Below, in pieces: positions 12,803 through 46,118 of a stretch of 64,000 bases of DNA. Position numbers and translations under genes: made by a program. Position 1 is the first letter of the stretch, and each line of letters starts with the position of its first letter. The notes under the pieces are model-generated. The model was given only the letters and a program-made list of their open reading frames with translations, had not been told where the DNA came from and searched no databases. This stretch comes from Bacteroidaceae bacterium (GTDB taxonomy: Bacteria; Bacteroidota; Bacteroidia; Bacteroidales; Bacteroidaceae): contig JAFUYT010000021.1 of assembly GCA_017470425.1 (NCBI GenBank), positions 147,162 to 211,161 on the forward strand, given 5' to 3'.

Positions 12803-15247
12803 TCACTTCACGATCCACTCAAAGAGACCGGCGGAGTTGTCAGCGGGCAGCACCACTTCGAGGCGCAGGGCACGGGTCTTGACGGGGTCGAAGTTGACAG
12901 TGCAGGCAGCACCCTTGTCGGTGGGATAGGCATCGGCACCGCTGACAGGCAGCCACTGCCCCTCGGCGCTCTGATAGAGGATGCGCCAGGACTGCGGCAC
13001 ACGGCAGCCGCCCCAGGGACCGTCATCGAACCAATAGACGGTCGCCATCTGGACGGTGCTCTCCTGCGGGAACTCGTAGGCGAGCCACTCCGTGGTGCCG
13101 TTCTTAGGCCACCAGTGGGTGTAGGGCACCGAGCGGTCGTTCTCGTCCTTCGGCACCAGACGGTCGTTGATGGATGAGAGGGCGGGCATCCGCGAGGAAG
13201 TCGTAATCCGGCTTTCGGAAGCCAGCGTGGCAGGCTGCGAGGGGCTGGTGGCACTGAGGTCCTGGGGCAGCCACACGCGCATCTTGCCGCTGCCGCGGTG
13301 GCACCATGCGTAATAGGGAATCAGCGTGAGCGAACGATCCGTAGCCTGCAGCTTGCCCTGGCGGTCGAAGTCGAGGGTCTGCGCGTCGGTGGTCAGCGTG
13401 ACAACGGGCGTGCTTGCCACCTCGGCATTGCCGAGCGTGAAGACCGGTTCCTGGTTCATGAGGGCTCCCATGATGTCGAAGTCGTTGTCGGGGTGTTCAG
13501 CGCAATAGACCAGGGGGCCGCGCTCCACGCTGATCATGCCCCGGTCGGCTGCAACCTTATGGTTGGCACGCACGATGCGTGCCTCCATGTCGAAGTGGAT
13601 CTGCACACGGTCGCCGCGCTTCCATTTGCGCGAGATGGTGTAGTACCCGTCCTCGGTCAGCTGTCCAGCGTCCGCTGTCTGCTGTCCATTCACCGTGACC
13701 GTGTAGCCGAGACGTCGGTTGTCGGAATAGCGGTAGAGGTCGGAGGGCACGACCTGCCCACGCACCCATCCCGGGATGCGCACCTTCAGGGCGAAAGCCC
13801 CGACAGCGTTCTTGTCAACGGAGAGCGTGACATCGCCGTTCCAGGGGTAGTCGGTCGTCTGGGTCAGCGCCACCTTCTTGCCACCCACGTTGAGCGTGGT
13901 GCTGTTGGAGAGGAAGAGGTTCACGTAAATGGCCGGTTCCCCATTCGCCTTATTCGCCTCATTGGCCTTATAGGCATAGACATACCCGGGCAGCGAGGGG
14001 ATGAAGCGGCAGATGTTGCTCGGGCAGCAGGCGCAGCCGAACCACGCCTGGCGCTGGTGCTGTCCCATTGATTCCAGCGGATTGGGGTAGAAGAAACCGT
14101 TGCCTTCGAGGGAGACACCGGAGATGAGTCCGTTGTAGAGCGTGCGCTCCAGGACATCGTAGTACTTCGCCTCGCCGTGCAGCAGGAACAGGCGGTAGTT
14201 GACATAGACGTTTCCGATGGCGGCGCACGTCTCGCAATAGGCACTCATGTTGGGCAGCTCATAGTTCCTGCCAAATGCCTCTCCGCTCGATGTGGCCCCG
14301 ATGCCGCCGGTGATATAGAGTTTCTTGCCCACGATGTTGTCCCAGATGGCATCGATGGCGCGGACGTAGTTCTCGTCCCCCGTCAGCGCTGCCACATCCG
14401 CCATGCCGGCGTACATATAGGCTGCACGAACGGCGTGGCCCACGGCCTCGTCCTGCTCGACGACCGGCTTGTGAGCCTGGGAATAGTCATGCACGATAGT
14501 GGTCTTGCCGCGGTAGTCGAGGAAGAACTTGGCCTCGTCGAGGTATTTCTTGTCGCCCGTGACCAGATAAAGCTTGGCCAGCGCCATCTCCGCAATCTGG
14601 TGACCGGGCACGACACAGGCCTGTCCAGGATTCGGTCCTACCTCGCGGCACACCACATCGGCGTAGCGGATGGCGATGTCAAGGAACTTGCGGCTGCCAG
14701 TGGCCTGGTAGTGGGCGATGGCGCCCTCCACCATGTGTCCGAGGTTGTAGAGCTCATGGGAGAGGTCCTCCTCCTTGCTCCAGCGCTTGTCGCCAGCCCA
14801 GTCATGGGGGTGCTGCGGGTTCTGGGTGCGGGAGGTGTAGAGGTATCCGTCGGGCTCCTGGGCCGATGCGATGACGTCGATCACCGAGTCGATGTACTGG
14901 ACCAGTCGCTTATCAGGATAGGTCTGGAGGAGATAGCTGGCCCCTTCGATGGTTTTGTAGGGATCGGTGTCGTCGAAGGAGTAGCCGCCGACCTTGAAGA
15001 CCTTGGAGGGGTCCTTCATGTGGGCTGCAGCGTTGGAGAAGTTGGTGTAGCGCCCAGTCTCCTCGCATTTGGAGAAGGCGAGGGGGATGGTGACCTTCCG
15101 GCTGGCTTCGAGGCGCTGGCCCCAGAAGGTGCCTGGCGTGACCTTCACGCTGGTGAACGGCACGGGGTTGATGGGGTAGCCAGCCTGTGCAAGGCACTGA
15201 GCGGCAGAGAGCGCGATGACTGACACGCAGAGTAGAATCCTTTTCAT
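12803..15247 (-). CDS. GH127-family beta-L-arabinofuranosidase, secreted
   Basis: Predicted to remove beta-L-arabinofuranose from arabinosylated polymers; the characterised relative HypBA1 acts on hydroxyproline-linked arabinose. The 814-residue product has a signal peptide ending near LAQA. Residues matching the HypBA1 active site are present: Glu323, Glu339 and Cys341 (CETCAAIGNVYVNYR), and Cys407-Cys408 (WFGCACCPSNICRF), which bind zinc and carry out catalysis. The C-terminal 130 residues (THWWPKNGTTEWLAYEFPQE to ALRLEVVLP) form an F5/8-type carbohydrate-binding module. It is divergent from the CotH gene and upstream of the BrkB gene. Family membership is firm, exact substrate inferred. 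Confidence 0.93.
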   Translation of the reverse strand: MKRILLCVSVIALSAAQCLAQAGYPINPVPFTSVKVTPGTFWGQRLEASRKVTIPLAFSKCEETGRYTNFSNAAAHMKDPSKVFKVGGYSFDDTDPYKTIEGASYLLQTYPDKRLVQYIDSVIDVIASAQEPDGYLYTSRTQNPQHPHDWAGDKRWSKEEDLSHELYNLGHMVEGAIAHYQATGSRKFLDIAIRYADVVCREVGPNPGQACVVPGHQIAEMALAKLYLVTGDKKYLDEAKFFLDYRGKTTIVHDYSQAHKPVVEQDEAVGHAVRAAYMYAGMADVAALTGDENYVRAIDAIWDNIVGKKLYITGGIGATSSGEAFGRNYELPNMSAYCETCAAIGNVYVNYRLFLLHGEAKYYDVLERTLYNGLISGVSLEGNGFFYPNPLESMGQHQRQAWFGCACCPSNICRFIPSLPGYVYAYKANEANKANGEPAIYVNLFLSNSTTLNVGGKKVALTQTTDYPWNGDVTLSVDKNAVGAFALKVRIPGWVRGQVVPSDLYRYSDNRRLGYTVTVNGQQTADAGQLTEDGYYTISRKWKRGDRVQIHFDMEARIVRANHKVAADRGMISVERGPLVYCAEHPDNDFDIMGALMNQEPVFTLGNAEVASTPVVTLTTDAQTLDFDRQGKLQATDRSLTLIPYYAWCHRGSGKMRVWLPQDLSATSPSQPATLASESRITTSSRMPALSSINDRLVPKDENDRSVPYTHWWPKNGTTEWLAYEFPQESTVQMATVYWFDDGPWGGCRVPQSWRILYQSAEGQWLPVSGADAYPTDKGAACTVNFDPVKTRALRLEVVLPADNSAGLFEWIVK

Positions 15248-15317
15248 ATATGGTTCGTTTGTTTAGTTATATCTCAATCGACTATTGTATAATTCGTTTG
15301 TCTTCTGATTTCGAGTG

Positions 15318-15352
15318 CAAAGATACCCTTTTCCTGTCAAAAAGCGCACAAA
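15318..15352 (-). promoter_or_regulatory. Promoter for GH127 gene
   Basis: TATCTTTG on the minus strand (complement of 15318-15325) with a TTTG 23 nt upstream (15349-15352), giving a leader of about 65 nt. The spacing is slightly long for the consensus. Confidence 0.5.
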
Positions 15353-15462
15353 TATCGCCGTTAGTTTCCAAAAAACACCTCTTCCGAGGCAATTTTATCA
15401 ACAATTTCAAGTTTTTTTGTACATTCCCAGCTGATTTGGCGCGGTCATTCGACAACTTATGA

Positions 15463-15470
15463 CTAATTTT
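15463..15470 (+). promoter_or_regulatory. Promoter -7 element before the CotH gene
   Basis: TAATTTTG lies 24 nt before ATG 15495 and on top of the upstream in-frame ATG 15459, so the downstream start is preferred. No well-spaced -33 element is visible. Confidence 0.45.
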
Positions 15471-15494
15471 GTAGCCGAAATTGAAGAAACCGAC

Positions 15495-17438
15495 ATGAAG
15501 ATTCTTTTCACGCAAGCAAGCAGGATGGCCCTCCTCGCGTGGACATTCCTGTTGCTTTGGCAGTTTCCCCTGTGTGCACAGGATGAACAGCCCACAGGCC
15601 AGCAGCGCACTCATCTCCACATGAACGCTGCGGGTGGCAAGTGGGACTTCCCCGTGACCATCGACAGCATCACCGACATCACCGTCAGCAGCGACCTCAG
15701 TCACCTGTTGCTGAACATGCCCGACGGGCAGTCGATGCCCTTCACTATCAGCCATATCGACAGCCTGACGGTCCTCAACGACCCGCTGGAGGAATCGAAG
15801 AACCCCTACAAGGTGTTCCAGCTCTACGTCACGACGCGCGACGAGGCGGGTGTGCACTCCCGCGAGAGCTACACCGACGCCTGGTTCTCGCTGAACGCGC
15901 AGGGCTCCTTCAGCCATTTCACCGCCGCCACCGGCATCCGCGGTCGCGGCAACAGTTCCTATCTCTGGTACGACAAGAAGCCGTACCGCCTGAAGCTCAA
16001 CGAGAAGCACAAGGTGCTGGGGCTCTCGAAGGCCAAGAGCTGGGTGCTGCTGGCCAACTACCGCGACGTGACGGATCTGATGAACACGTTCGTGTTCGAG
16101 ATGGGTCACTACGTGGGGCTCCCCTACACCAACCATACGCGCTACGTGGAGCTCTTCCTCGACGGCAGCTACGAGGGCCTGTACCAGCTCACGGAACAGG
16201 TGCAGCAGAACAAGAACCGCGTGGCAGTGAGCGACGAGGGCGGCATCCTGATCTCGCTCGACGTCGATGACGGCCCCGCCGAGTCGCCCTCTGCCGGCGA
16301 CAACTTCTGGAGCGAGGTCTATGGGATGCCTGTCTGCGTGAAATACCCCGACGATGAATGGTTCACGAGCCACACGGTGGATTCCGTGCGCACCGTCTTC
16401 GCGGAGCTCGAGAGAGCCATCAAGTCGAAGAACTTCGCGGCTGTGGAGCAGCTGCTCGACGTCCCGTCGATGATCAAGTACCTTCAGCTTCAAGAATTTG
16501 TCTATAACGTAGAGCTGTCCGCCCCGCGCTCCATCTATATGCACAAGGACGGCGACGGCCGCTGGGTGATGGGTCCTCTGTGGGACTTCGACGCGGGCTA
16601 CGACTTCGATTGGGGCAGCATGACCACGGGCCACACCTTCTTCACGGACTTCACCGAGACCGTCATGGGCACGAACCCGCTGAAGCGCAACGGTCAGTAC
16701 AACTATGTCCCGCAGTTCTTCACCGACCTCTTCGGGTGCCCGGAGTTCGTGGAGCAGTACAAGGCGCAGTGGGCTGCGGTGAAGGACAGCATTGTCACGG
16801 TGGCGTGGGATGCCTGTCTGCGCTACGTCGCCGAGTGGCGCGCCTCGGGAGCCCTGACGCGTGAGTTCGCGCGGTGGCCGTTGGCCGGAAAGTCCTTCGA
16901 CACCGAGCTGGAGAAGATGCACCAGTGGCTGCTGAACCGCCAGCGCCACATGACCTACCTCATCGCCGCCATCCCCGTGCCGGACGCGACGCCGGTCGTG
17001 GGCGAGAAGCTCTGCGGCACGATCACCGCCAGGGTGAAGATGGACTGGAACGCGGGCTACAGCCAGAGCAACAAGGTCTCTGTCAGCAAGAGCCGTGTGC
17101 TGGGCCTCATGGGCTTGCAGGAGAGCGAGTTGCAAGAGTCGAACCTCTCCATCGTGCCGCTCTACACCGACGGCAGCGAGGGCGAGAACCACACGAACGG
17201 CACCTATGGCGCATGGTTCAATGAGGACGACGACCCGGGCTACTACGACGACGGCCACACCTACATCGAGGTGTTCCAGGATCTCTGGAACTGGAACTGC
17301 GGCCTCTACCAGTGGAACTGCTACGACGACAGCCACACCGTCACCATGCAGTACCAGTACCCCCACGACGGCACACTCCTGAAGGTCAACGTCAAAGTGG
17401 TCTTCACCATCGAAAACGCCGGTGGCGGATGGTGGTGA
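15495..17438 (+). CDS. Secreted CotH-kinase-family protein
   Basis: A 647-residue exported protein. After a signal peptide (ILFTQASRMALLAWTFLLLW) comes a beta-rich region, then the CotH kinase-like domain with GIRGRGNSSYLWYDKKPYRL, SWVLLANYRDVTDLMNT, YEGLYQLTEQVQQNKNRV and the catalytic-type motif GPLWDFDAGYD. The C-terminal 130 residues (YGAWFNEDDDPGYYDDGHTY) resemble a DUF4859 module. CotH proteins of spore formers phosphorylate coat proteins; in Bacteroidetes they are surface proteins of unknown target. It stands at the head of three plus-strand secreted proteins ending in GH43, suggesting a shared job at the surface. Confidence 0.85.
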   Translation: MKILFTQASRMALLAWTFLLLWQFPLCAQDEQPTGQQRTHLHMNAAGGKWDFPVTIDSITDITVSSDLSHLLLNMPDGQSMPFTISHIDSLTVLNDPLEESKNPYKVFQLYVTTRDEAGVHSRESYTDAWFSLNAQGSFSHFTAATGIRGRGNSSYLWYDKKPYRLKLNEKHKVLGLSKAKSWVLLANYRDVTDLMNTFVFEMGHYVGLPYTNHTRYVELFLDGSYEGLYQLTEQVQQNKNRVAVSDEGGILISLDVDDGPAESPSAGDNFWSEVYGMPVCVKYPDDEWFTSHTVDSVRTVFAELERAIKSKNFAAVEQLLDVPSMIKYLQLQEFVYNVELSAPRSIYMHKDGDGRWVMGPLWDFDAGYDFDWGSMTTGHTFFTDFTETVMGTNPLKRNGQYNYVPQFFTDLFGCPEFVEQYKAQWAAVKDSIVTVAWDACLRYVAEWRASGALTREFARWPLAGKSFDTELEKMHQWLLNRQRHMTYLIAAIPVPDATPVVGEKLCGTITARVKMDWNAGYSQSNKVSVSKSRVLGLMGLQESELQESNLSIVPLYTDGSEGENHTNGTYGAWFNEDDDPGYYDDGHTYIEVFQDLWNWNCGLYQWNCYDDSHTVTMQYQYPHDGTLLKVNVKVVFTIENAGGGWW

Positions 17439-17480
17439 AAATTGAGAAATTAAAAGTGAACTACTAACTAAATAGAATAT

Positions 17481-19637
17481 ATGAAACGACTCTTTACTCT
17501 TCTCGCTCTGGTGAGCATCGCGGCGACCTCTGTGTTCGCCGACAAGACCGTGTATATTCCGCGGTCATGGTCCTACAACGCCTCGACGCAGGAATACACC
17601 GAGGGCGGGAACAGCGACCTGCAGTGGTCCTACAACCGCAGCAAGCAGTCGGAGAACTGCATCATCTTCTGGCAGAAAGGCTTCGGCGACGACCCCTCGA
17701 AGGCTCCGCGCCTGGACGGCGTGGATATGACGGTCGATGTGGATGCCGTGCTGCGCGTGGCGGAGACGTGCTACGACCTGAACGTGAACCGTCTGGGCTT
17801 CTCGAGCAGCAATATGCGCGAGAAGTACAAGATCATCATCCTGATGAACTACACGACGACGTGGACATGCTACGGCGGCGGCTACGACTTCGTCTGTAGT
17901 GCCCTGTGGCTGAACCCCGCGACGGTGAAGCCCGCGGGCCATTCGCTGGCTCACGAGGTAGGCCACTCCTTCCACTACATGAGCTTCGCCGAGCACGCGG
18001 GCTACCAGAACTCCACGACCGACAACACGGGCTTCCACCTCTCCTGCGGCAACGGCCAGGCCATCTGGGAGCAGACGGCGCAGTGGCAGGCCAACCAGGC
18101 CTACCCGGAGCTGATGTTCGACCAGAGCGTGAACGTGTTCCGCAACTCCCACAACTACGCCTTCTCCCACGAGTGGCACCGCTACCAGAGCTACTGGTTC
18201 CACTACTACCTCTGTCAGTACTACGATGACATCACCACCGTGGCACAGGTCTGGAGCACCCCGATGACGGGACAGTCCGATGGCAACGCCACCGACTTCA
18301 ACAGCGCGCTCATGAAGCTGAAGTCGCTCTCTGCGCGCGACCTCTACAAGCTCTACTTCGACTACGCCTGCCGCATGGCCACGTATGACATCGAGGTCTG
18401 CCGCCCTTACCGCGACGGCAACATCGGCGACTTCAACTACCGCTGCGTGCTAACCGACGACGACCAGTACCAGGTGGCCCTCTTCTCCTGTCCGCAGGGC
18501 ACGGGCTTCAACGTCATCCCGCTGGAAGTGCCCGCGGCAGGCACCGAGGTGACGACCTCGCTGACGGGTCTCCCCGTGGGCAGCGCCCTGCTCGATGCCG
18601 ACCCGGGCGAGTTCCTCAACGGCGACTCCCGCGCCGAAACCATCGAGCGCCGCAACTACGTCAACGGCGGCCCCCGCGCCGCCCGCGGCTTCCGCATGGG
18701 CTACGTGGCGCTGATGCAGGACGGCACGCGCCGCTACTTCGCTGAGGACAGCGTCTATTGTCAGGGCACCACCACCGCCACGGCCGACTACGCCTTCACC
18801 GTCCCCGAGGGTGTCAGCCGCCTGTGGCTGGTCATCTCTCCAGCGCTGAAGAACTATTTCGTCCATAAGTGGGACGACAGCATCGAGAAGGACGACATGT
18901 GGCCCTACCGCTTCCGCCTCCAGGGCACCGACATCGGCACGCGCGCCACCGTCTATGCCGAGCCGACGCTCGACGGGCGCGCGCTGGCCGACGCCACCTT
19001 CACCTATGATGTCACCTTCCCGCGCGATGCCTCCTACTACAGCGGCATCACCATCGCCGTGGGCGGCAAGGCCGCAGCCACACTCGGCACCGCCTTCCAG
19101 ATGAGCCCCTCCGGCATCAACGCAAAGATGCAGGCCTGGAGCGCACAGGGGCCCGCCAACGGCAAGATCGTCTTATACGCCGCCGACGCCGACGGCAGCC
19201 TGGCCGCGAGCGGCTCCACCGCCAACGGCTACGGCCACTGGTTCAACGCCCAGGGCACCGTCTCGTCTTTCGCCGACGGCGTCCTCTACTCCGAGTTCTC
19301 GCCCTCGCAGCTGCTGTTCTCCCTCGGCCAGAGCCCCGGCAAATGTGCCGAAGGCAGCACCTACACCATCCGTCAGGCACTGCGCTACCGCAAGAACCCT
19401 CGCGAGTACGCCCAGGCGAACTTCATCTTCCACATCACCGTCGGCGGCTCCACCGCATCGGCCATCCTGCGCGAGATTGACTACACCAACCCCGACCTCG
19501 TTGGCATCAGCCTCCCCGACGCCGACGCCGCAACCAGCACGCCCGAGGCTCCCATCTACGACCTCCAGGGCCGCCGCCTCGCCACGCTCCGGAAGGGCAT
19601 CAACATCGTGGGCGGTCGCAAGATCATCGTGAAATAG
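17481..19637 (+). CDS. Secreted gluzincin-type metallopeptidase with DUF4859 module
   Basis: A 718-residue protein with signal peptide (cleavage near SVFAD). The zinc peptidase motif HEVGH lies at 158-162 (SLAHEVGHSFHYM), with a downstream glutamate at 197 (AIWEQTAQW) in the place of the third ligand. The first 210 residues align by eye with the product at 44859 (shared YIP, GFG, ALW and HExGHSF blocks). A DUF4859-like region covers about 480-660. The tail YDLQGRRLATLRKGI to GRKIIVK resembles a type IX secretion sorting domain. Likely DUF6055-type family; substrate unknown. Confidence 0.8.
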   Translation: MKRLFTLLALVSIAATSVFADKTVYIPRSWSYNASTQEYTEGGNSDLQWSYNRSKQSENCIIFWQKGFGDDPSKAPRLDGVDMTVDVDAVLRVAETCYDLNVNRLGFSSSNMREKYKIIILMNYTTTWTCYGGGYDFVCSALWLNPATVKPAGHSLAHEVGHSFHYMSFAEHAGYQNSTTDNTGFHLSCGNGQAIWEQTAQWQANQAYPELMFDQSVNVFRNSHNYAFSHEWHRYQSYWFHYYLCQYYDDITTVAQVWSTPMTGQSDGNATDFNSALMKLKSLSARDLYKLYFDYACRMATYDIEVCRPYRDGNIGDFNYRCVLTDDDQYQVALFSCPQGTGFNVIPLEVPAAGTEVTTSLTGLPVGSALLDADPGEFLNGDSRAETIERRNYVNGGPRAARGFRMGYVALMQDGTRRYFAEDSVYCQGTTTATADYAFTVPEGVSRLWLVISPALKNYFVHKWDDSIEKDDMWPYRFRLQGTDIGTRATVYAEPTLDGRALADATFTYDVTFPRDASYYSGITIAVGGKAAATLGTAFQMSPSGINAKMQAWSAQGPANGKIVLYAADADGSLAASGSTANGYGHWFNAQGTVSSFADGVLYSEFSPSQLLFSLGQSPGKCAEGSTYTIRQALRYRKNPREYAQANFIFHITVGGSTASAILREIDYTNPDLVGISLPDADAATSTPEAPIYDLQGRRLATLRKGINIVGGRKIIVK

Positions 19638-19646
19638 TCCGCGCCC

Positions 19647-25589: not shown

Positions 25590-25698
25590 AAGCGCAAGGA
25601 AAAAATCGCGCTAAGGGTGTTTTTTCTGCGCAAAGGGGCTGTCGAAGGGCCTCGGAAGTCTAAAAATAGAGGCGTAAGAAAAACTTTGTCGGAAAATG

Positions 25699-25730
25699 TT
25701 TGCGCGAATGGGCATAAGGTTGTATCTTTG
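25699..25730 (+). promoter_or_regulatory. Promoter of the long SusCD-fasciclin-peptidase series
   Basis: TTTG (25699-25702), exactly 20 nt, then TATCTTTG (25723-25730): a full consensus match 19 nt before ATG 25750. It is the only strong promoter I found ahead of nine co-directional genes. Confidence 0.8.
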
Positions 25731-25749
25731 TTGCATAAAACTGACCGAA

Positions 25750-33700: not shown

Positions 33701-34091
33701 CGATGCCGAGGCCATGAGCACCAACAACAACCAGAGCAAGGCCGTCAACTACCGATGGCGCAGGGAGGGCGACGTGACGACCATCCCACGTGCCATGTAC
33801 GGCTCCTCGACCAACTACAACACGCTCGTCAGCGACCGCTTCGTGGAGGACGGCACCTTCCTGCGGCTGAACTACCTGCAGCTCTCCTACTCCTTCGACC
33901 CGAAGGTCATCAAGCGCTTCCTCGGACTCGCACGCCTCAGCCTCTACGCCAGCGCCAACAACCTCTTCATCCTCACCCGCTATAAGGGCGTCGATCCCGA
34001 GGTGAGCTACAGCGGCTACGGCGCTGCCGTCGATGGCGGACAGACACCGCGCGCCAAGTCCTTCACCTTCGGCCTCACCGTAGATTTCTAA
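30768..34091 (+). CDS. SusC/RagA-family TonB-dependent transporter
   Basis: An 1107-residue outer-membrane importer. Order: signal peptide (FQLIVLTATAQ), carboxypeptidase-like plug-preceding domain (VHGTVRDEYGELPGASVCEV), plug with TTVDEALQGRIAGLDI and the SusC signature VLKDAAATAIYGSQGANGVI, then a 22-strand-type barrel ending KSFTFGLTVDF. Works with the SusD-like lipoprotein encoded 3 nt downstream, driven by TonB, to import an oligomer too large for porins. Substrate unknown. Confidence 0.95.
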   Translation: MRYRIFLLSLFQLIVLTATAQVKAVHGTVRDEYGELPGASVCEVDGTGRIIEATITDMNGNFSMRIRNPKDKLRISYVGCKPQLLAIKTELVNVTLVSQTMQEVTVTAQKKLNSGGLAIPEREISFATQTIDMKEFEGLGMTTVDEALQGRIAGLDIIANSGNLGAGTTMRLRGASSISTLTNPNPLIVVNGNTWNVDMNNFDVTNANDEQFAQLLNVNPEDIASITVLKDAAATAIYGSQGANGVIEITTKRGAKGAPKLTYSLRLTGTYQPPGYKMLNGDDYTMLLKESYFNPEQNDNASNLAELNYDPTFSEYEQYNNNTDWVDAVTQWGLRQNHYISVTGGGEKATFRISGGYDHETGSVIKQKQNRFATRLALDYYVSERIKISTNFALTYTDTQRNYDDLLAIAYKKMPNMSIYEQYPVGHPLQGQDTDRYYTMLQSAPNVFKDDQRAYVNPVASAHLATNDDRTYDITPELEINYKLLGTDDDSHQLNWQGRVYMNVFNEYVDKFYPKELVTVSWNNGVNNAYTGSSKSVAFNTKQTLTFIPSFKNKDHSLMAMGRFELTSGSSNGQGTDATKLPSGGITLPTAGGKVTGMNSSFSQWRSMYYTFSTHYAYKSRYMLDVSLRVDGTTKFGPDRRWGYFPAASLRWNIIDEKWMQPTRSWLSMLALRGSWGQVGNQPNRDYLYESIYSSAPRYLDMGAMQPDNIRLTNLKWETTATWDVGLDLSFFDDRLRLQAEWYHSKRRDMLMENVSIPSSTGYYALAYSNVGSMTNIGWELNLQTNKLIRKGKFFADLNFTFGNNRNEILTMDETVLKTLNSKFNYENREVLKRVQLNNPFGAIYGFRYKGVYEYQYETFAAMTPQERTDFVSAGHTAPYVLSETGEIVTDDKGQPVRMIYNYSHDNTGKNYMFNGGDAIYEDVNHDGNINALDIVYLGSSLPKLTGGFGFTLNYGRWKLNTQFNYRVGNKILNLARLDAEAMSTNNNQSKAVNYRWRREGDVTTIPRAMYGSSTNYNTLVSDRFVEDGTFLRLNYLQLSYSFDPKVIKRFLGLARLSLYASANNLFILTRYKGVDPEVSYSGYGAAVDGGQTPRAKSFTFGLTVDF

Positions 34092-35856: not shown

Positions 35857-35898
35857 TGGACAATGGATAGTGGACAATGGACAGTTGACAATTGACAG
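35857..35898 (+). repeat. Heptanucleotide tract before second fasciclin gene
   Basis: Six 7-mers in phase: TGGACAA, TGGATAG, TGGACAA, TGGACAG, TTGACAA, TTGACAG, ending 14 nt before ATG 35913. Confidence 0.8.
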
Positions 35899-35912
35899 TT
35901 AGAATCAGAAAC

Positions 35913-38019: not shown

Positions 38020-39702
38020 ATGCCCTCCAAATATGCCCTCCTCCGTTGTCGTGTAGGCTGCGTATGTTGCGCAGCAATCCTCGCTCTCGCCGCCTGCAAC
38101 GATGCCTGGAGCGACCACTACGACGCCACCTCCACCACCCAAGAGAGCGGCACTCTGTGGGATGCCATCGCCGCACAACCAGACCTCTCCAACTTCGCAC
38201 GCGTAGTGGAGGCCTGCGGCTACGACATCCTCCTCAGCGGCAGCCAGGCCTACACGGTCTTCGCGCCCACCAACGACGCCCTCACCACCGCCGAGGCCGA
38301 CGTCCTCATAGAGGAATTCCGGCAGCAGCAAGCGGCCGGCACACGCGTCAACGACAACACCGTCGTCAGGCAGTTCCTTCAGAACCACATCGCACTCTAC
38401 AAATGGCCGGTCTCATCCATCACCAATGACAGCATCACGCTGATGAATGATAAGTACGCCGTCCTCACGCCCTCCACCCTCGCAGGTCAGCAGCTGCTCT
38501 CCACCAATGCCCTCTACAGCAACGGACTGCTCTTCACGCTGGGGCACCAGCTCGACTACTTCCCCAACGTCTTCGAGTACCTAGGCCACGACGATGACCT
38601 GGACAGCGTCTATCGGTTCCTGAACAGCTTCAGCGTCTATGAGTTCAACGATGCCAAGAGCGTGCCGGGCGAGATTGTCGATGGACAGACCGTCTATCTC
38701 GACTCCGTCTCGGAGCTCCGCAACACGGTCCTCCAGCGCTACGGCCTCATCAACTCCGAGGATAGCACCTACTGGATGCTCTGCCCCACCAACAGCGAGT
38801 GGCGCCGACTGGTCGGCGAGTACGAACCGTTCTTCAACTACGCCAACAGCGTCAACCAGCGCGACTCCCTGATCTACGCCAACACCCGCCTGGCCATCAT
38901 CAGCGGAGCCTTCTTCAGCCGCACGATCAACTCCGACGAGGCCTTACGCGACTCCGCCGTCTCCACCCGAGCCATCTCCCACTCCTTACGACGCATGACG
39001 GGTTGGGAAGATGCCTACTACACCTATTTTAAACCTTACGCACAAGGCGGCGCCTTCTATGGCACCGAGGACATCACGTGCAGCAACGGCCACGTGCTCA
39101 AGTCCCCCGCTTGGGGCATCTCCAAGTTCGAGACCTTCGCGCAGACCATCAAGGTCGAAGCAGAAAACATCCTGGCACAGGACACCATCATCGATGCTGT
39201 GGATCCGCTCATCGTCCGCGAAGTGGCCAGTAACAACCCCTTCTACGGCAAGGTGTCAGGCAACAGCTTCGTGGAAGTGCAACCCGACCCCGCCACCGCA
39301 CAGGTCACCGTGCAGTACCGCGTGCCGAACATCCTCTCCGGCATGAAATACGACATCTACGCTGTCTTCGCGCCGGCAACAGCCTACGACACACTGGCGG
39401 TCGATGAGACCAAGCGCCCGAACATCATCCTGCCCACCCTCCAGTGGCTCGACCAGAACGGCAAGGAAGGACGCAACAACCGCATGAGGACGAAGACCGT
39501 GAACACCGCCGTCATGGACACCATCCAGTTGGTCACCGGGCAGACTTTCCCCACCAGCTCCTATGGGCTGGCTGAGGAGCAGGTGAAGCTGCGCATCAAG
39601 TCCAACATCCAGAGCAACCAGACGACCACCCACTCCGGAACCCTTCGCATCGACTGCATCATCTTCCGGCCTACCGAGCTGGGCGGCTTCGCGGCACAAT
39701 AG
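38020..39702 (+). CDS. Fasciclin-domain lipoprotein
   Basis: A 560-residue protein with lipobox LALAAC. Two fasciclin repeats: LSNFARVVEACGYDILLSGS with YTVFAPTNDAL, and a second around VFEYLGHDDDLDSVYRFLNS with TYWMLCPTNSEWRRLVGEYE. A C-terminal beta domain follows (EVQPDPATAQVTVQYRVPNI). The open frame extends 126 codons further upstream into the previous gene, but the heptad tract and lipoprotein signal fix the start at 38020. Next comes the second SusC gene, 45 nt away. Confidence 0.85.
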   Translation: MPSKYALLRCRVGCVCCAAILALAACNDAWSDHYDATSTTQESGTLWDAIAAQPDLSNFARVVEACGYDILLSGSQAYTVFAPTNDALTTAEADVLIEEFRQQQAAGTRVNDNTVVRQFLQNHIALYKWPVSSITNDSITLMNDKYAVLTPSTLAGQQLLSTNALYSNGLLFTLGHQLDYFPNVFEYLGHDDDLDSVYRFLNSFSVYEFNDAKSVPGEIVDGQTVYLDSVSELRNTVLQRYGLINSEDSTYWMLCPTNSEWRRLVGEYEPFFNYANSVNQRDSLIYANTRLAIISGAFFSRTINSDEALRDSAVSTRAISHSLRRMTGWEDAYYTYFKPYAQGGAFYGTEDITCSNGHVLKSPAWGISKFETFAQTIKVEAENILAQDTIIDAVDPLIVREVASNNPFYGKVSGNSFVEVQPDPATAQVTVQYRVPNILSGMKYDIYAVFAPATAYDTLAVDETKRPNIILPTLQWLDQNGKEGRNNRMRTKTVNTAVMDTIQLVTGQTFPTSSYGLAEEQVKLRIKSNIQSNQTTTHSGTLRIDCIIFRPTELGGFAAQ

Positions 39703-39747: not shown

Positions 39748-42700
39748 ATGAATAGAAAATTCATTTTCGCAATCCCCCTCCTGCTGCTCAGCACCCTGGC
39801 GGCGTGGGCACAGGAAACTGGCGACGAAACAGCTCCCGCTGCCGTCAGGAAAGAAGCGCCCAAAAAGCAGTACCCCACGCGCACCGTGCGCGGTAAGGTG
39901 CTCGACGCTGCCACGCGCCAGCCAATGGCAGGTGCGCTGGTGAGAGTCGCCGAGATAGAAGGCTACAGCACGCTCACGGCCGATGATGGCACCTACGAAC
40001 TCACCGTGCCGCAGTTCGCCACTTCCATCGAAGTGTCAGTCCCCGACTACAACCTTGTCAAGATCGGACTCCGCACTGGCGAAGAGCAGCAGGAAGCACG
40101 CCTCCACCCCGATACGTTCACGCCCGAATACGATGCCGCGACGAGTATCGCCGTGAGCTCCGCCATGAGTGACTTCCGCTTCAGCAATGCCGTCAGCATC
40201 GAAAATGAGATCCAGAACCGCCTCGGCGCTGTCGTCCACACGACCACGCGCAGCGGCACACCCGGCATCGGAAGTGTCATGTTCATCGGCGGCCTCAACT
40301 CTCTGAATGCCAACGCGCAGCCACTCATCGTCATTGATGACGTCATCTTCGACCAGCAGTACAGCCGCACCACCCTCCACGACGGTTTCTACAACGACAT
40401 CCTCAGCAACATCAGCACGGCTGACATCGAGAGTGTAGAGGTGCTACAGAACGGCACTGCGCTCTACGGTGCCAAGGGCTCTAACGGTGTGATCCTCATC
40501 CGCACACGCCGCAACCACAGCATGGCCACCCGCATCACCGCCAGCCTCTCCGCAGGCGTGGTGCTCGAACCGAAGCACTTCAAGATGATGGATGCCACGC
40601 AGTATCGGAGCTACGCCAGCGACCTGCTGCAAAGCACCCACACGACCATCAAGGATTTCAAATTCCTCAACGAGAATCCTTCCTATTACTACTATCCGCA
40701 ATATCACAACGACACCGACTGGAAGGACGACATCTATCGCACGGCTGTCACCCAGAACTACAACATCAACGTGGAGGGTGGCGATGACGTGGCCGACTAC
40801 AACCTCTCACTCGGCTACATCAACCACAAGAGCACGCTCGACTACAACGCCATGAACCGCATCAACATCCGCTTCAACAGTGATATCCGGCTCACGGACC
40901 GTTTCGACGTACGCTTCGATGCCTCCTTTGCCAACCAGACACGCAACCTGCGCAACGACGGAGCACCCTCCAACTACACCGAGGGCACACCCACGTCGGC
41001 AGCCTTCCTCGCCTATGCCAAGAGTCCGATGCTCAGTCCCAGGACGTTTGCCAGCGGACAGATCCGGAAGGGCTACATCGACGTCTCCGATGAGAGCTAC
41101 CTCGATGAAGCACTCGCGGACTACAGCAACTACAACTACAAGCTCGCCAACCCACTGGCCATCAACGAATACGGTGATGCCGAAAACAAGAACCGCTTCG
41201 AGAACTCGATGGTCAACCTGTCCGTGAAGCCTAAGTTCCGCTTCGGACGCTACGTCACACTGAGCGAACATTTCAGCTACAACCTTGTCAACACCAACGA
41301 GAAGTTCTATATTCCCCTCAACGGTGTACCCTCCTACTATGTCTCGAGCGTCAACGCCTACGTCGATAACGAGGTCCGCTCGATGGCCGGCAAGCAGAAC
41401 TCCCTGATGAGCAACACTCGCCTCGACTTCCAGAAGCGCTTCGGTGCCCATGACCTGCATCTCTTCGGCGGCGCACGCATCAACTGGGAGACCTACACGC
41501 TCTCCTCGCAGTTGGGCTACAACACCACGAGCGATAAGATGCCCTCCATCAGTTCATCGCTTGACCACGCACAGATCTTCGGCAACAGTGACAAATGGAC
41601 CAACATCGCATGGTACGCCCAAGGCAGCTACAACTATCTCCAGCGCTACTACCTTCAAGCCAGCCTCACCGCCGAAGCCTCCTCGCGCTACGGTCGCGAT
41701 GCCGATGGCGCACTGAAGTTCTGCGGCGTTCCCTGGGGCATCTTCCCGGGCGTGCAGGCGGCATGGGTCATCAGCAATGAACCCTGGTTCCAGCGCCTGG
41801 CCTCCACCGCTGCTCACCCTGTGGCTGTCAACTACCTCCGCTTAAACGTGGGCTATGACGTCACAGGTAATGATGACATTGACTACCACGCCGCACGCAG
41901 CTACTTCGCCTCCCATAACTTCCTCGAGGATGTCTCCGGGTTGACACTGGAGAACATCGGCAACACACACCTGAAGTGGGAGACTACCCGCCGCTTCACC
42001 GTCTCGGCTGAAGCCAACTTCCTCGACAACCGTCTGAACCTGCGCGCGGGATTCTTCTCTGCCGTCACAGACGACCTGCTGCTGTATCGCCCGCTGCACT
42101 ATGTCACCGGCTTGCAGCACAACTGGGCCAACAGCGGCAAGATGACCAACCGAGGATTCGATGTCAGCCTGCGTGCCAAGTTGCTGGCACTGAAAGACTG
42201 GCAATGGGAAGTCGGTGCCACGATGGGACACTACAAGAATCGCATCAGCGAACTCGGCATAGGGCAGACAGCCATCGAGAACGAAGTCTATGGCGCCACC
42301 ATCCGCACCCAGGAGGGGCAGGCTGCCAACCTGTTCTACGGCTACCACGCCGAGGGTGTCTTCGCGACCTCTGAGGAAGCCACACAGGCGGCCCTCTACA
42401 TCCTGGATGACAACGGCAGTGACCACCACAACTTCACTGCCGGCGACGTACACTTTGCCGACCTCAACGGCGACCATCGCATCGATGCCGCCGACCGCAC
42501 CATCATCGGCGACCCCAACCCCGACATCTACGGAAACATCTTCACATCGCTCAACTGGCGACGACTGAAGCTCGACATCAACTTCAACTACTCGCTCGGC
42601 AACGACATCTACAACTACCAGCGACAGCAGCTCGAGAGCGGTTCGCGGTTCATGAACCAGACGACAGCCGTCAACCGCCGCTGGCAGACCGAACAGCAAC

Positions 42701-43008
42701 AGACCGACATGCCGCGCGCCACCTTCCAGGATCCGATGGGTAACAACCGCTTCAGCGACCGATGGATTGAGGACGGAAGCTACCTGAAACTGAAGACCGT
42801 CACCCTCTCCTACACACTGCCCATGCGCACACAGTTCCTGCAAGGGTTCCAGTTCTGGATTCAGGGCAACAACCTGCTGACCTTCAGCAAGTATCTGGGA
42901 GGTGATCCCGAGAGCGCCATGACAGGTAGCGTCATCGGACAAGGCATCGACTTAGGATTGCTCCCGCTGAGTCCCAGCTTCGTAGCAGGTGTAAAGATCA
43001 ACCTGTAA
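39748..43008 (+). CDS. Second SusC/RagA-family TonB-dependent transporter
   Basis: A 1086-residue outer-membrane protein: signal peptide to AWAQE, a carboxypeptidase-like domain (RGKVLDAATRQPMAGALVRV), a plug region with VIDDVIFDQQY and the signature VLQNGTALYGAKGSNGVILI, and a barrel ending FVAGVKINL. It differs from the first SusC in having no clear ASVxxALxGRxxG box before the plug (FSNAVSIENEIQNRLGAVVH is the counterpart), which suggests a different substrate or a degraded plug. It is followed by its SusD partner after 92 nt of heptad repeat. Confidence 0.93.
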   Translation: MNRKFIFAIPLLLLSTLAAWAQETGDETAPAAVRKEAPKKQYPTRTVRGKVLDAATRQPMAGALVRVAEIEGYSTLTADDGTYELTVPQFATSIEVSVPDYNLVKIGLRTGEEQQEARLHPDTFTPEYDAATSIAVSSAMSDFRFSNAVSIENEIQNRLGAVVHTTTRSGTPGIGSVMFIGGLNSLNANAQPLIVIDDVIFDQQYSRTTLHDGFYNDILSNISTADIESVEVLQNGTALYGAKGSNGVILIRTRRNHSMATRITASLSAGVVLEPKHFKMMDATQYRSYASDLLQSTHTTIKDFKFLNENPSYYYYPQYHNDTDWKDDIYRTAVTQNYNINVEGGDDVADYNLSLGYINHKSTLDYNAMNRINIRFNSDIRLTDRFDVRFDASFANQTRNLRNDGAPSNYTEGTPTSAAFLAYAKSPMLSPRTFASGQIRKGYIDVSDESYLDEALADYSNYNYKLANPLAINEYGDAENKNRFENSMVNLSVKPKFRFGRYVTLSEHFSYNLVNTNEKFYIPLNGVPSYYVSSVNAYVDNEVRSMAGKQNSLMSNTRLDFQKRFGAHDLHLFGGARINWETYTLSSQLGYNTTSDKMPSISSSLDHAQIFGNSDKWTNIAWYAQGSYNYLQRYYLQASLTAEASSRYGRDADGALKFCGVPWGIFPGVQAAWVISNEPWFQRLASTAAHPVAVNYLRLNVGYDVTGNDDIDYHAARSYFASHNFLEDVSGLTLENIGNTHLKWETTRRFTVSAEANFLDNRLNLRAGFFSAVTDDLLLYRPLHYVTGLQHNWANSGKMTNRGFDVSLRAKLLALKDWQWEVGATMGHYKNRISELGIGQTAIENEVYGATIRTQEGQAANLFYGYHAEGVFATSEEATQAALYILDDNGSDHHNFTAGDVHFADLNGDHRIDAADRTIIGDPNPDIYGNIFTSLNWRRLKLDINFNYSLGNDIYNYQRQQLESGSRFMNQTTAVNRRWQTEQQQTDMPRATFQDPMGNNRFSDRWIEDGSYLKLKTVTLSYTLPMRTQFLQGFQFWIQGNNLLTFSKYLGGDPESAMTGSVIGQGIDLGLLPLSPSFVAGVKINL

Positions 43009-43013
43009 ATGAG

Positions 43014-43082: not shown

Positions 43083-43100
43083 AATTGAACAAAGAGAATT

Positions 43101-44849
43101 ATGATTACCACAAGACTATACAAAATCCTGGTTGCGTTCTGCGTAGGCGGCGCTTTTAGCGCAGCCCTCACCTCCTGCTCAGGCTTCCTCTACGATGACT
43201 CCGACCAGATTATCTATGCCGATGACCACTCGCTCAACAGCGACGCTGACACCCTCTGGTCCGTGACTGGCATCATGAACAAGATGCAGGCAGTGGCAGA
43301 CCGCACTATCCTTCTGGGCGAGGTGCGTGCCGACCTGGTATCGCTCACGGGCGACGCTCCCGCCGCCCTCCAGCAGATGGCAGACTTCAATATGTCCGCT
43401 GAAAACGCCTACAACCAGCCACGCGACTACTATGCCATCATCAACAACTGTAACTTCTTCCTGAGCCGCGCCGACACTGCACTGCGCGACGGTCGCAACA
43501 AGCATATCTTCCTCAAGGAATACGCCGCTGTGAAAGCCTTCCGCGCATGGACCTACCTGCAGCTCGCCCTCAACTATCGCAGGGTTCCCTTCATCACCGA
43601 GCCGATTCTTGCCGAGGAGGAATCCGAGCAGCAGTTCACGCGCTACGACTTGCAGCAGGTCTGCCAGTACTTCATTGCCGACATCGAGCCCTACGCCGAC
43701 ATCGAGCTGCCGGACTACCAGAAAATCCGCAACACCGACTCACGCCTCTTCTACTACCCTATCTACGTGCTTCTGGGCGATCTCAACCTGTGGGCTGGCA
43801 ACTATCGCGCTGCCGCAGAGAACTACTACAAGTACCTCTCCACGCACAACGGCACCAACTCCTCCTATCCGCTCTCCACCAATGCCGTGCGCTTCAGCAA
43901 CAACGACAGCCACTGGACGATGATGCTCGACACATGGTCTCCGATGTTCTCCGATGAGGAAGCACAGAGCAGTTCCGAAATCATCACTATGATTCCCGGC
44001 GACTCCATCCCTTCCGAAGGCAACTACAGCCTCCTGCGAGACCTCTTCAACACCACAGAGAACAACAACTACCGCGCAGCCATTCGCCCGTCCCAGGCTA
44101 TCATCAACCTCTCGAAAGCTCAGAAATACTGCCAGTTCACTACTGGCGGTGAATTTGTCTTTGCCCCGGATAACCTCTCTGGCAACCGCTCCGGCGACCT
44201 GCGCCTCGCTGCCGCCTACAGCGAGGAGAACGGGCAGATGATGAAGAACGGAAAGACCATCGACCACTTCGCTGCCTTCACCAAGTACCAGACAGCACAC
44301 GTCCACGTCCTGCGTCGCGTGATGGTCTATCTGCGTCTGGCCGAGGCTCTGAACCGCGCCGGCTTCCCCCGCTTTGCCTTCCAGATTCTGAAACAGGGCA
44401 TCAACAACAACGTCATCGAGAACGAGGTACTCCCCTACTACCCTGCCGACGAGGCGTGGCTCCGCACCTTCGACTTCCCCAACATCGCCTACATTCTGGA
44501 GACCACCGCTGGACAGCTGACCGAGAACACGATGGGCATCCACTCCCGCGGCTGCGGATATAGCGCATACAACACCGCCTACGAACTGCCCGACGACGCC
44601 TCCATCACCGACGAGGCTGCACGCCTACAGTACCAGATTGAGCACGTTGAAGACCTGATTGTCGATGAGAGTGCCCTTGAGCTGGCCTTCGAGGGGCAAC
44701 GCTTCTATGACCTCATGCGCGTAGCCCTGCGCCGCGGCACTCCCGACTATCTGGCCAGCCGTGTGGCTCGTCGCACAGGCAGCACGAATACCTCGCTGCT
44801 CCAGCATCTCTCTGACAGCAATAATTGGTACTTGAATCTTGATAACTGA
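43101..44849 (+). CDS. Second SusD/RagB-family surface lipoprotein
   Basis: A 582-residue lipoprotein with lipobox AALTSC. SusD marks: AVKAFRAWTYLQLALNYRRV, EPYADIELPDYQK, and the C-terminal LIVDESALELAFEGQRFYDL followed by MRVALRRGTPDYLA. It pairs with the SusC gene at 39748. Ten bases separate it from the last peptidase gene, so the two are co-transcribed. Confidence 0.93.
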   Translation: MITTRLYKILVAFCVGGAFSAALTSCSGFLYDDSDQIIYADDHSLNSDADTLWSVTGIMNKMQAVADRTILLGEVRADLVSLTGDAPAALQQMADFNMSAENAYNQPRDYYAIINNCNFFLSRADTALRDGRNKHIFLKEYAAVKAFRAWTYLQLALNYRRVPFITEPILAEEESEQQFTRYDLQQVCQYFIADIEPYADIELPDYQKIRNTDSRLFYYPIYVLLGDLNLWAGNYRAAAENYYKYLSTHNGTNSSYPLSTNAVRFSNNDSHWTMMLDTWSPMFSDEEAQSSSEIITMIPGDSIPSEGNYSLLRDLFNTTENNNYRAAIRPSQAIINLSKAQKYCQFTTGGEFVFAPDNLSGNRSGDLRLAAAYSEENGQMMKNGKTIDHFAAFTKYQTAHVHVLRRVMVYLRLAEALNRAGFPRFAFQILKQGINNNVIENEVLPYYPADEAWLRTFDFPNIAYILETTAGQLTENTMGIHSRGCGYSAYNTAYELPDDASITDEAARLQYQIEHVEDLIVDESALELAFEGQRFYDLMRVALRRGTPDYLASRVARRTGSTNTSLLQHLSDSNNWYLNLDN

Positions 44850-44858
44850 TCAGATGCC

Positions 44859-46118
44859 ATGAGACGCCTCTTCCCTATTCTCTGCATTCTTCTGTGCCAC
44901 TGCTCCCTCTGCCTGGCACAGAAACAGATCTACATCCCCGAGGACCTACGGGGCATGAACCTGGAAAGCGACACCTCGCAGTGGTCATTCGTCCGCAGCG
45001 TGGAGACACGTGACCTCATCTTCATGTGGGAACGCGGTTTCGGCCACGACCTGCAGCATCCGCCATTGCTGGAGGGCAAGCCGATGGGCGTCAACCTGTC
45101 AGTGCTCACTCACCGCGTACAGCATTTCTACACATTCTTCCGCGACACACTGGGCTTCATCCGACAGGATCAGGAACACCCCAGCAAAGCCGAGCGCTAC
45201 AAGATGATGGTCATGTTGAGCTACTCCCTTGACGGGACGGCCTACGGTGGCACCTACGACGACTTCATCGGCGCCCTTTGGGTGGCTCCCAACCGCATCC
45301 ATGACAGCACCATGAACTGTATGGCACACGAACTGGGTCACTCCTTCCAACTGCAGATCCCCGCCGACTCCGTGGGCGAAGCATGGGGCGGCACAGGGTT
45401 CTTCGAGATGACCAGCCAGTGGATGCTCTGGCAGGTGAATCCCTGGTGGCTGCGCGATGAGAACTACCACTTCGAAGCCTTCAAGCATCTGACACACAAA
45501 GCCTTTTTGCATCCCGAAAACTTCTACCATTCGCCCTATGTCATCCAATGGTGGAGCGACTTACGAGGACGCAAAAGCATTGCAGAGCTCTACCGTCAAG
45601 GACGCATCGGCGAGGATCCCGCGATGACGTATATGCGGCTGTACGGCTTGTCGCAAGAGGCGTTCTGCGACGAGATGTTCCGCGGCTACCAGCATCTCGT
45701 GAACTTCGACTTCCAGCACGCCCGCCAGGAGACACGCCCCTACGCCTGCACTTTCGCCAGCGAAGTTGAGAAGCAAGGCAGCTGGTACAGCCCGAAGGAT
45801 GTTCCCGAAGATTACGGTTTCAACGCCATCCTACTGGACAACAAGGTCAACCTCGCCGCACGCACCTTCCGCCTGCGCCTACGGGGCAGCGACCTGCGCT
45901 ACGGCTTTGTGGGCATCACCTCGGAGGGCGAGAGTCTCTACTCCCCCGTCGGCGCCACCACCTTCACCGTGCCGCGTGGCACGACACTCAGCCATCTCTA
46001 CCTGATTGTCATGGGAGCACCCCGTCAGCACGTACGCGCCGCGATGCCTGGCGATGAAGCTACAGGCAACGATGCCTCACCCCGGCAGTACCCCTACCAG
46101 TTCAAAGTCACGAACTGA
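44859..46118 (+). CDS. Secreted gluzincin-type metallopeptidase
   Basis: A 419-residue exported protein (signal peptide to CLAQ), similar through its first 210 residues to the product at 17481. Zinc motif HELGH at 157-161 (NCMAHELGHSFQLQ) and Glu183 in GFFEMTSQW as presumed third ligand. It lacks the DUF4859 and sorting domains of its relative, and so has only the catalytic core plus a short beta domain (RTFRLRLRGSDLRYGFVGIT). It ends the long operon. Peptidase activity and substrate are inferred from the motif only. Confidence 0.78.
   Translation: MRRLFPILCILLCHCSLCLAQKQIYIPEDLRGMNLESDTSQWSFVRSVETRDLIFMWERGFGHDLQHPPLLEGKPMGVNLSVLTHRVQHFYTFFRDTLGFIRQDQEHPSKAERYKMMVMLSYSLDGTAYGGTYDDFIGALWVAPNRIHDSTMNCMAHELGHSFQLQIPADSVGEAWGGTGFFEMTSQWMLWQVNPWWLRDENYHFEAFKHLTHKAFLHPENFYHSPYVIQWWSDLRGRKSIAELYRQGRIGEDPAMTYMRLYGLSQEAFCDEMFRGYQHLVNFDFQHARQETRPYACTFASEVEKQGSWYSPKDVPEDYGFNAILLDNKVNLAARTFRLRLRGSDLRYGFVGITSEGESLYSPVGATTFTVPRGTTLSHLYLIVMGAPRQHVRAAMPGDEATGNDASPRQYPYQFKVTN

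What the first reader, a model, noticed from the sequence alone, without database searches (positions are those of the whole stretch)
12803..46118. Surface locus combining arabinose-releasing glycosidases, putative metallopeptidases and two SusCD importers
Seen: GH127 and GH43 enzymes, three HExxH peptidases, CotH protein, DUF4859 proteins, three fasciclin lipoproteins and two SusCD pairs lie in one block. Known: characterised GH127 enzymes act on beta-L-arabinofuranose, including that attached to hydroxyproline in extensin-type proteins. Inference: the locus may take apart arabinosylated plant glycoproteins (extensin or arabinogalactan protein), sugar and peptide together, rather than a plain polysaccharide. 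I know of no described locus with this set.
Basis: partly seen in the sequence, partly recalled or inferred. Interest (0 to 1): 0.72.

Follow-up and report, generated by a model that had tools for sequence, protein, structure and literature searches.

The report
Likely plant cell-wall glycoprotein-eating gene locus
A gut-type relative of Prevotella carries one gene block that pairs arabinose-cutting enzymes with probable protein-cutting enzymes and a double nutrient importer, and comparison with related bacteria suggests that it digests hydroxyproline-rich plant wall glycoproteins such as extensin, sugar and protein together.

Summary
In detail: GH127, CotH, DUF6055+DUF4859, GH43, fourfold DUF4859, a Pfam-less HEGIH protein (PEP), three FAS1 proteins, two SusCD pairs and a second DUF6055 lie as stated. 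In Prevotella relatives the block belongs to a larger HTCS-linked locus that can add a GH97 alpha-galactosidase, a second GH127 and DPP-IV-type peptidases. Parts of the enzyme set also gather around other importers (Tannerella, Draconibacterium and others). Arabinosidases, alpha-galactosidase, prolyl-type peptidase and endopeptidases fit extensin best; 5 of 10 locus genomes carry a hydroxyproline-dehydratase-like enzyme, background not measured. Against: the fasciclin/SusCD cassette also occurs without these enzymes, PEP lacks all eight partner classes in 31 of 80 named loci, and the GH127 resembles an arabinogalactan-PUL enzyme. PEP looks like a new, probably T9SS-exported family distantly related to DUF6055, with a CBM32-like domain. 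Verdict: a new variant of the PUL; hydroxyproline-rich plant glycoprotein is the best-supported target, untested biochemically.

The parts
12803..15247 (-). GH127 beta-L-arabinofuranosidase-type enzyme with a weak C-terminal F5/8C-like match; signal peptide by eye
   Evidence: Pfam E 9e-120; closest solved chain 6ex6, 1003.6 bits over residues 22-672; Glu/Cys motifs align with HypBA1 3wkw
15459..17438 (+). CotH protein with C-terminal DUF4859-like module (aa 556-632)
   Evidence: Pfam CotH E 4.8e-40; iterated profile, domain E 2e-16 within the small set searched
17481..19637 (+). DUF6055 (M106-type) metallopeptidase candidate, HEVGH, + DUF4859 module + T9SS-like tail (tail by eye)
19647..22538 (+). 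GH43 with F5/8C and LamG domains
   Evidence: Pfam E 1.5e-37; best solved chain 5msx, E 7.7e-38
23069..25495 (-). Fourfold DUF4859 protein with T9SS-like tail (tail by eye)
   Evidence: Pfam, 4 stretches; tail
25696..28071 (+). HEGIH metallopeptidase candidate, 'PEP' (start probably 25750): CBM32-like domain, catalytic part distantly related to DUF6055, T9SS-type tail
28108..30729 (+). Fasciclin (FAS1) lipoprotein 1
   Evidence: Pfam E 7e-7 for the whole protein; lipobox by eye
30768..34091 (+). SusC-like TonB-dependent transporter 1
   Evidence: TIGR04056 E 1.7e-214
34095..35855 (+). SusD-like lipoprotein 1
   Evidence: Pfam E 5.4e-28
35892..37979 (+). Fasciclin (FAS1) lipoprotein 2
   Evidence: Pfam E 2.7e-13
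38020..39702 (+). Fasciclin (FAS1) lipoprotein 3 (start chosen by its signal peptide)
   Evidence: Pfam E 4.8e-7 for the ORF from 37642; start
39748..43008 (+). SusC-like TonB-dependent transporter 2
   Evidence: TIGR04056 E 4.5e-166
43101..44849 (+). SusD-like lipoprotein 2
   Evidence: Pfam E 3.2e-7
44859..46118 (+). Second DUF6055 (M106-type) metallopeptidase candidate, HELGH
   Evidence: Pfam E 2e-103; HExxH

Best explanation
The block is a glycoprotein-utilisation variant of a PUL aimed at arabinosylated hydroxyproline-rich plant wall glycoprotein, most likely extensin-type. Proposed order: exported peptidases (PEP with its CBM32-like domain, DUF6055 with DUF4859) and the DUF4859 protein bind and open the glycoprotein outside the cell (inferred); two SusCD pairs with three fasciclin lipoproteins take up glycopeptides (inferred); GH43 removes alpha-linked and GH127 beta-linked arabinofuranose next to hydroxyproline (family activities known, substrate inferred); in relatives an alpha-galactosidase and DPP-IV-type peptidases finish Ser-Gal and X-Pro ends (genes shown, roles inferred). 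Gene content, order, recurrence and motifs are shown; substrate and order of steps are inferred.
For: Gene content. Extended locus in relatives: of 15 enlarged loci (picked by me for contig length and content from the 23 genomes, several clipped by contig ends), 12 have DUF6055, 9 CotH, 9 an HTCS at 47% or more to one reference (which is one of them), 8 a GH127 at least 60% identical to the window's, 6 a GH97 and 6 a DPP4 (one is the reference). The one GH97 examined (L113) matches retaining alpha-galactosidase 3a24, E 1.3e-183, and keeps the Asp that chain 5e1q has as Gly. Other importers or none recognised: G148/G176 (GH127, GH97, DUF6055, PEP), Tannerella L131 (GH127, GH43, DUF6055, CotH), L127 (GH43, GH127, GH27), L134 (GH43, GH127, GH27, a weak DUF6055 match), Draconibacterium L146 (DUF6055, CotH, GH43, two DPP4), L153 (GH127/146-type, DPP4, GH27). 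In PEP-less genomes G164, G075, G150, G163 and G141 a window-like GH127 lies with DUF6055 and an HTCS. GH127-DUF6055 within 25 kb in 19 of 72 genomes with both, 2.9 expected. In the 80 PEP loci (+-10 kb) beta-Araf with alpha-Gal p 0.003, GH43 with alpha-Gal p 0.0009, DUF6055 with CotH p 0.0001, not corrected for kinship. HypD-like enzyme in 5 of 10 locus genomes, four above the NCBIfam cut-off and one at 1096 of 1100 bits. The DUF4859 module is shared by DUF6055, CotH, the fourfold protein and PEP of other genera. SprA in the genome.
Against: PEP has none of eight partner classes within 10 kb in 31 of 80 named loci, some on short contigs, and none of the window's catalytic partners or cassette in 11 of 19 unnamed neighbourhoods (one of the 11 has a weak DUF4859-like hit). 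The cassette occurs without recognised enzymes (own C29) or with other glycanases. The GH127 ortholog is in 118 of 201 family genomes, PEP in 42. Some PEP neighbourhoods hold GH2 (L087, L114) or a rhamnogalacturonan-exolyase-type gene (G604), which extensin does not need. The window lacks GH97, DPP4 and HTCS; its genome (72% complete) has a 53% DPP4 homolog elsewhere, GH97s only 27-31% alike and no PF02901 enzyme. The closest solved GH127 is probably from an arabinogalactan PUL (recall). DUF6055-beta-Araf, DPP4-beta-Araf, DPP4-DUF6055 and DPP4-GH43 are not significant in the +-10 kb set (p 0.13, 0.43, 0.18, 0.14).
Confidence: 0.55

Rival explanations
1. The target is arabinogalactan protein or arabinogalactan: GH127 and GH43 trim arabinogalactan side chains as in the B. 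thetaiotaomicron PUL BT3674-87, and the peptidases deal with the AGP core.
For: BT3674-87 is listed with arabinogalactan as primary substrate (PMC3243724, one passage); GH127 BT3674 acts with galactanases on larch AG (PMC10850190, passage); BT3675 cuts alpha1,3-Araf of gum arabic AGP (PMC8939339, passage); the window GH127 is very close to 6ex6, which I believe from recall to be BT3674; gum arabic carries alpha-Gal on arabinose (abstract of PMC8939339), which a GH97 could remove; GH2 genes near PEP in L087 and L114.
Against: In the best-annotated locus, G593, no galactanase was recognised between GH127 and HTCS; four ORFs there were not scanned against Pfam.
Confidence: 0.22
2. Neighbours without a joint task: a peptide-scavenging operon (PEP, cassette, DUF6055) beside an arabinan-trimming GH127/GH43 set.
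For: PEP without partners in 31 of 80 loci; the cassette travels with other enzymes or none; GH127 and the nine-gene run are on opposite strands in the window.
Against: Peptidase candidates and arabinosidases meet again in L131, L127, L134, L146, L153, G148 and G176 with other or no recognised importers; GH127-DUF6055 excess.
Confidence: 0.12
3. The cassette and the CotH, DUF4859 and FAS1 proteins build or mature a surface layer or adhesin rather than feed the cell.
For: FAS1 is known as an adhesion domain (recall; also said in PMC7661554, passage); T9SS-like tails; cassette without recognised enzymes in own C29.
Against: Two SusCD importers, and HTCS and glycosidases in relatives.
Confidence: 0.06
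4. The target is an animal glycoprotein (mucin or collagen).
For: PEP carries a CBM32-like domain, close in fold to modules of mucin-active enzymes; HypD could serve collagen.
Against: Arabinosidases have no evident role there; many of the closest named relatives are rumen or other herbivore-gut MAGs (titles), though Hallella seregens is, by recall, a human oral isolate.
Confidence: 0.05

Closest known systems
B. thetaiotaomicron arabinogalactan PUL BT3674-87
   Same: GH127 (BT3674) and GH43 (BT3675) with an HTCS (BT3678) by the passages; the window GH127 is very close to solved chain 6ex6, which I take from recall to be BT3674
   Different: Here metallopeptidase candidates, CotH, DUF4859 proteins and a twin SusCD/fasciclin importer, and no galactanase recognised; the other genes of the BT locus were not compared here
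Bifidobacterium longum extensin-arabinoside system (GH43 HypAA, GH121 HypBA2, GH127 HypBA1)
   Same: GH43 + GH127 logic for Hyp-linked arabinosides (PMC10850190, passages)
   Different: An ABC transporter by the abstract of PMC7263609; no peptidase or SusCD named in what I saw; no GH121 protein recognised in the window block
Porphyromonas gingivalis RagAB
   Same: SusCD-type importer linked to protein use (recall)
   Different: Window SusC1 scores higher to SusC homologs 8aa4 and 5t3r (glycan importers by recall) than to RagA
DUF6055 / MEROPS M106
   Same: Two window proteins carry DUF6055 over cut-off
   Different: The HEGIH protein has no Pfam family and matches DUF6055 only by profile comparison

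Membership tests
Bacteroidales PUL (SusCD-type) | adjacent SusC and SusD genes | tested here: met
   two pairs
Bacteroidales PUL (SusCD-type) | glycan-active enzymes in the locus | tested here: met
   GH127, GH43
Bacteroidales PUL (SusCD-type) | linked sensor-regulator (common, not universal) | tested here: not met
   none among the 30 window ORFs scanned, which include the block and both border genes; present in relatives
Bacteroidales PUL (SusCD-type) | induction by its substrate | not testable with these tools
   needs transcript data
GH127 beta-L-arabinofuranosidase | GH127 catalytic, middle and C-terminal domains | tested here: met
GH127 beta-L-arabinofuranosidase | conserved Glu and Cys/Zn motif | tested here: met
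   ETC and CACCP motifs aligned with 3wkw; residue roles from recall
GH127 beta-L-arabinofuranosidase | activity on Hyp-linked Araf | not testable with these tools
   the family also holds aceric acid hydrolase BT1003; NCBIfam aceric acid hydrolase hit, 456 bits, is below its cut-off of 950
DUF6055 / M106 | Pfam DUF6055 over cut-off and HExxH (17481-19637 and 44859-46118) | tested here: met
DUF6055 / M106 | Pfam DUF6055 in the HEGIH protein | tested here: not met
   no Pfam hit; distant profile match only
DUF6055 / M106 | thermolysin-like (gluzincin) peptidase fold | tested here: inconclusive
T9SS cargo | type A sorting domain on PEP | tested here: inconclusive
   22.6 bits against cut-off 23; profile tail matches solved chains with Por tails, E 0.002-0.03
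T9SS cargo | T9SS in the genome | tested here: inconclusive
   SprA found, E 1.5e-221; other components not searched
GH97 retaining alpha-galactosidase (relatives only) | similarity to the solved retaining enzyme and its Asp | tested here: met
   one protein, L113; other GH97s by BLAST to it
Extensin-degrading locus | hydrolysis of extensin | not testable with these tools
   no assay

The most novel reading that the evidence does not exclude
A dedicated extensin-utilisation locus: a PUL variant that imports arabinosylated glycopeptides through a twin SusCD/three-fasciclin port, uses a new T9SS-secreted, CBM32-bearing metallopeptidase family related to DUF6055/M106, marks its exported parts with a shared DUF4859 module, and in relatives feeds the released hydroxyproline to HypD.
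Probability: 0.33. Interest if true: 0.78.

Novelty: new variant of a known kind. Interest (0 to 1): 0.6.

Why it matters
How gut and rumen Bacteroidales break down hydroxyproline-rich wall glycoproteins is, as far as my searches show, little described, and PULs are mostly read as polysaccharide loci. If true, this joins sugar and protein breakdown in one regulated locus, gives functional guesses to DUF6055, DUF4859 and a Pfam-less peptidase family, and links plant wall protein to bacterial hydroxyproline metabolism. A relative of the locus lies in the named strain Hallella seregens ATCC 51272, with GH127-family genes and an HTCS but no GH97 or DPP4 recognised in the stretch fetched, so parts can be tested in an isolate.

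Tried and rejected
PDB sequence searches of PEP and DUF6055b alone found nothing; profiles gave only tail or weak hits. Fold search did not test the DUF4859 part of the DUF6055a model. A PI-PLC-like neighbour (L085, E 3e-4) suggested GPI-anchored proteins; of the proteins beside other cassettes that BLAST labelled 'PIPLC', three were scanned and were an arabinofuranosidase, a weak lectin-domain match and no family, so I dropped the idea. SusC1 as a RagA-like peptide importer was not supported. Dropped before counting: BLAST hits to GH127 under 40% and to GH97/GH27 under 40% identity; a 29% GH97 hit (G594) and HTCS hits of 25-30% (G634, G611). Hallella_03, 24% to the window GH127, is a GH127-family protein by Pfam; the 31% hit in G634 was not scanned. 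Literature searches listed no described locus of this make-up; PMC4454575 (passages) assigns extensin use to GH127 in Latescibacteria. Cartmell 2018 (PMC6217937) is not held. The expected value assumes uniform placement in 3 Mb genomes; both match lists were cut by the tool, and the genomes are related to each other.
Full report
Observation. On the minus strand lie GH127 (12803-15247) and a fourfold DUF4859 protein (23069-25495); on the plus strand CotH, DUF6055+DUF4859 and GH43 (15459-22538), then a nine-gene run with gaps of 3-92 bp: HEGIH protein ('PEP'), FAS1-1, SusC1, SusD1, FAS1-2, FAS1-3, SusC2, SusD2, DUF6055b. The genome is a 2.4 Mb, 72% complete assembly in 36 contigs. Many of the closest named relatives of PEP are Prevotella or Bacteroidaceae MAGs from rumen and other herbivore guts (titles).

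Shared module. A profile seeded on two window DUF4859 domains and iterated finds the module in the fourfold protein, at the C-terminus of DUF6055a, at the C-terminus of CotH and at the N-terminus of PEP in other genera (E-values refer to the small set searched). A module appended to three different proteins suggests a common binding or targeting role (inference).

Importer cassette. FAS1-SusC-SusD-FAS1-FAS1-SusC-SusD is a conserved unit. Two more copies lie in the same genome: C29 without recognised enzymes, and C31 beside a GH2-like gene and one that looks GH43-like by eye. Similar units occur in other Bacteroidales families; proteins beside them that I scanned include an alpha-L-arabinofuranosidase, PF11790 glycosidases, a rhamnogalacturonan lyase and lectin/LamG proteins. 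The cassette is thus not specific to this substrate. SusC1 scores higher to SusC homologs 8aa4 and 5t3r than to RagA.

Catalytic set. In Prevotella relatives the block extends, in varying completeness, to GH127-GH97-(GH43)-(DPP4)-(second GH127)-CotH-DUF6055-DUF4859-PEP-cassette-DUF6055-(M61)-HTCS-(DPP4). Of 15 enlarged loci, picked by me for contig length and content from the 23 genomes and some clipped by contig ends, 12 have DUF6055, 9 CotH, 9 an HTCS (47% or more to a reference that is one of them), 8 a GH127 at least 60% identical to the window's, 6 a GH97 and 6 a DPP4 (one is the reference). With other or no recognised importers, parts of the set still gather with PEP: G148/G176 (GH127, GH97, DUF6055), Tannerella L131 (GH127, GH43, DUF6055, CotH), L127 (GH43, GH127, GH27), L134 (GH43, GH127, GH27, a weak DUF6055 match), Draconibacterium L146 (DUF6055, CotH, GH43, two DPP4), L153 (GH127/146-type, DPP4, GH27). 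Alpha-galactosidases of two families, GH97 and GH27, thus appear in this setting; only one of each was checked against Pfam, the rest by BLAST. Of ten stretches fetched around window-like or second GH127 genes, six hold DUF6055; five of these six are from genomes without PEP (G164, G075, G150, G163, G141), all five with an HTCS and three with a SusCD, while G069, G087, G135 and G138 show no DUF6055 in the stretch. Across 201 family genomes, window-type GH127 and DUF6055 lie within 25 kb in 19 of 72 genomes with both in the listed rows, against about 2.9 expected.

Substrate. GH127 with HypBA1-type motifs, GH43, alpha-galactosidase in relatives, DPP-IV-type S9 peptidases and endopeptidase candidates, with no galactanase recognised in the G593 core (four ORFs there unscanned), match extensin: Hyp-linked beta-Araf chains (PMC10850190, passages), an alpha1,3-Araf cap and Ser-alpha-Gal (both recall). 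Five of ten locus genomes that I chose carry a HypD-like hydroxyproline dehydratase: G589, G593, G605 and G629 above the NCBIfam cut-off and G590 at 1096 of 1100 bits; G598, G053 and G072 have only pyruvate formate-lyase, and G000 and G604 have no PF02901 hit. No background was measured. The AGP rival stays open: the nearest solved GH127, 6ex6, is probably BT3674 (recall), and PUL BT3674-87 is listed with arabinogalactan as its substrate (PMC3243724, one passage).

Results against. PEP has none of eight partner classes within 10 kb in 31 of 80 named loci, some on short contigs, and none of the window's catalytic partners or cassette in 11 of 19 unnamed neighbourhoods, one of which has a weak DUF4859-like hit. 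The GH127 ortholog is in 118 of 201 family genomes, far wider than PEP in 42. In the 80-locus set beta-Araf/alpha-Gal, GH43/alpha-Gal and DUF6055/CotH associate (p 0.003, 0.0009, 0.0001, no correction for kinship or number of tests) and DUF6055/GH43 weakly (0.04), but DUF6055/beta-Araf, DPP4/beta-Araf, DPP4/DUF6055 and DPP4/GH43 do not (0.13, 0.43, 0.18, 0.14). GH2 genes lie near PEP in L087 and L114 and a rhamnogalacturonan-exolyase-type gene in G604. The window copy lacks HTCS, GH97 and DPP4; its genome holds a 53% DPP4 homolog on another contig and only distant GH97s.

Verdict. A real, conserved locus; plant hydroxyproline-rich glycoprotein is the best-supported target (0.55), extensin more likely than AGP. 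It is a new variant of the PUL, not a new kind of system. Papers were seen as follows: passages of PMC10850190, PMC3243724, PMC8939339, PMC11241649, PMC4454575, PMC7661554 and PMC10199937; starts of abstracts in search listings for PMC7263609 and the rest.

Noticed in passing
window 7032-9222 (-): GmrSD_N/HNH endonuclease gene next to an EcoRI-type adenine methylase, in a stretch of lower G+C (about 0.45-0.48): a likely restriction-modification island.
   Followed up: no
G000:C29:42666-60582 and G000:C31:47436-66058: Two more copies of the FAS1/SusCD cassette in the same genome; a DPP4 homolog (53%) lies about 8 kb from the C31 copy.
   Followed up: partly
L107, L108, L111, L116, L117, L118, L121, L123: PEP in a separate neighbourhood with an M16 peptidase, in seven of these eight loci also with CotH, and without the listed glycosidases within 10 kb.
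   Followed up: partly
window 11778-12818 (-): BrkB-like membrane protein gene overlaps the 3' end of GH127 by 16 bp on the same strand, so it may be co-transcribed.
   Followed up: no
L089:11982-19892 (-): A 2637-aa protein stands where the cassette is expected next to PEP in one Prevotella relative; it ends in a T9SS-like tail by eye.
   Followed up: no
L085:3439-5532, L086:3581-5731: PI-PLC-X/dockerin-like proteins beside the DUF4859 and PEP genes in two relatives; domains were shown for L085 only (E 3e-4 and 6e-7).
   Followed up: partly
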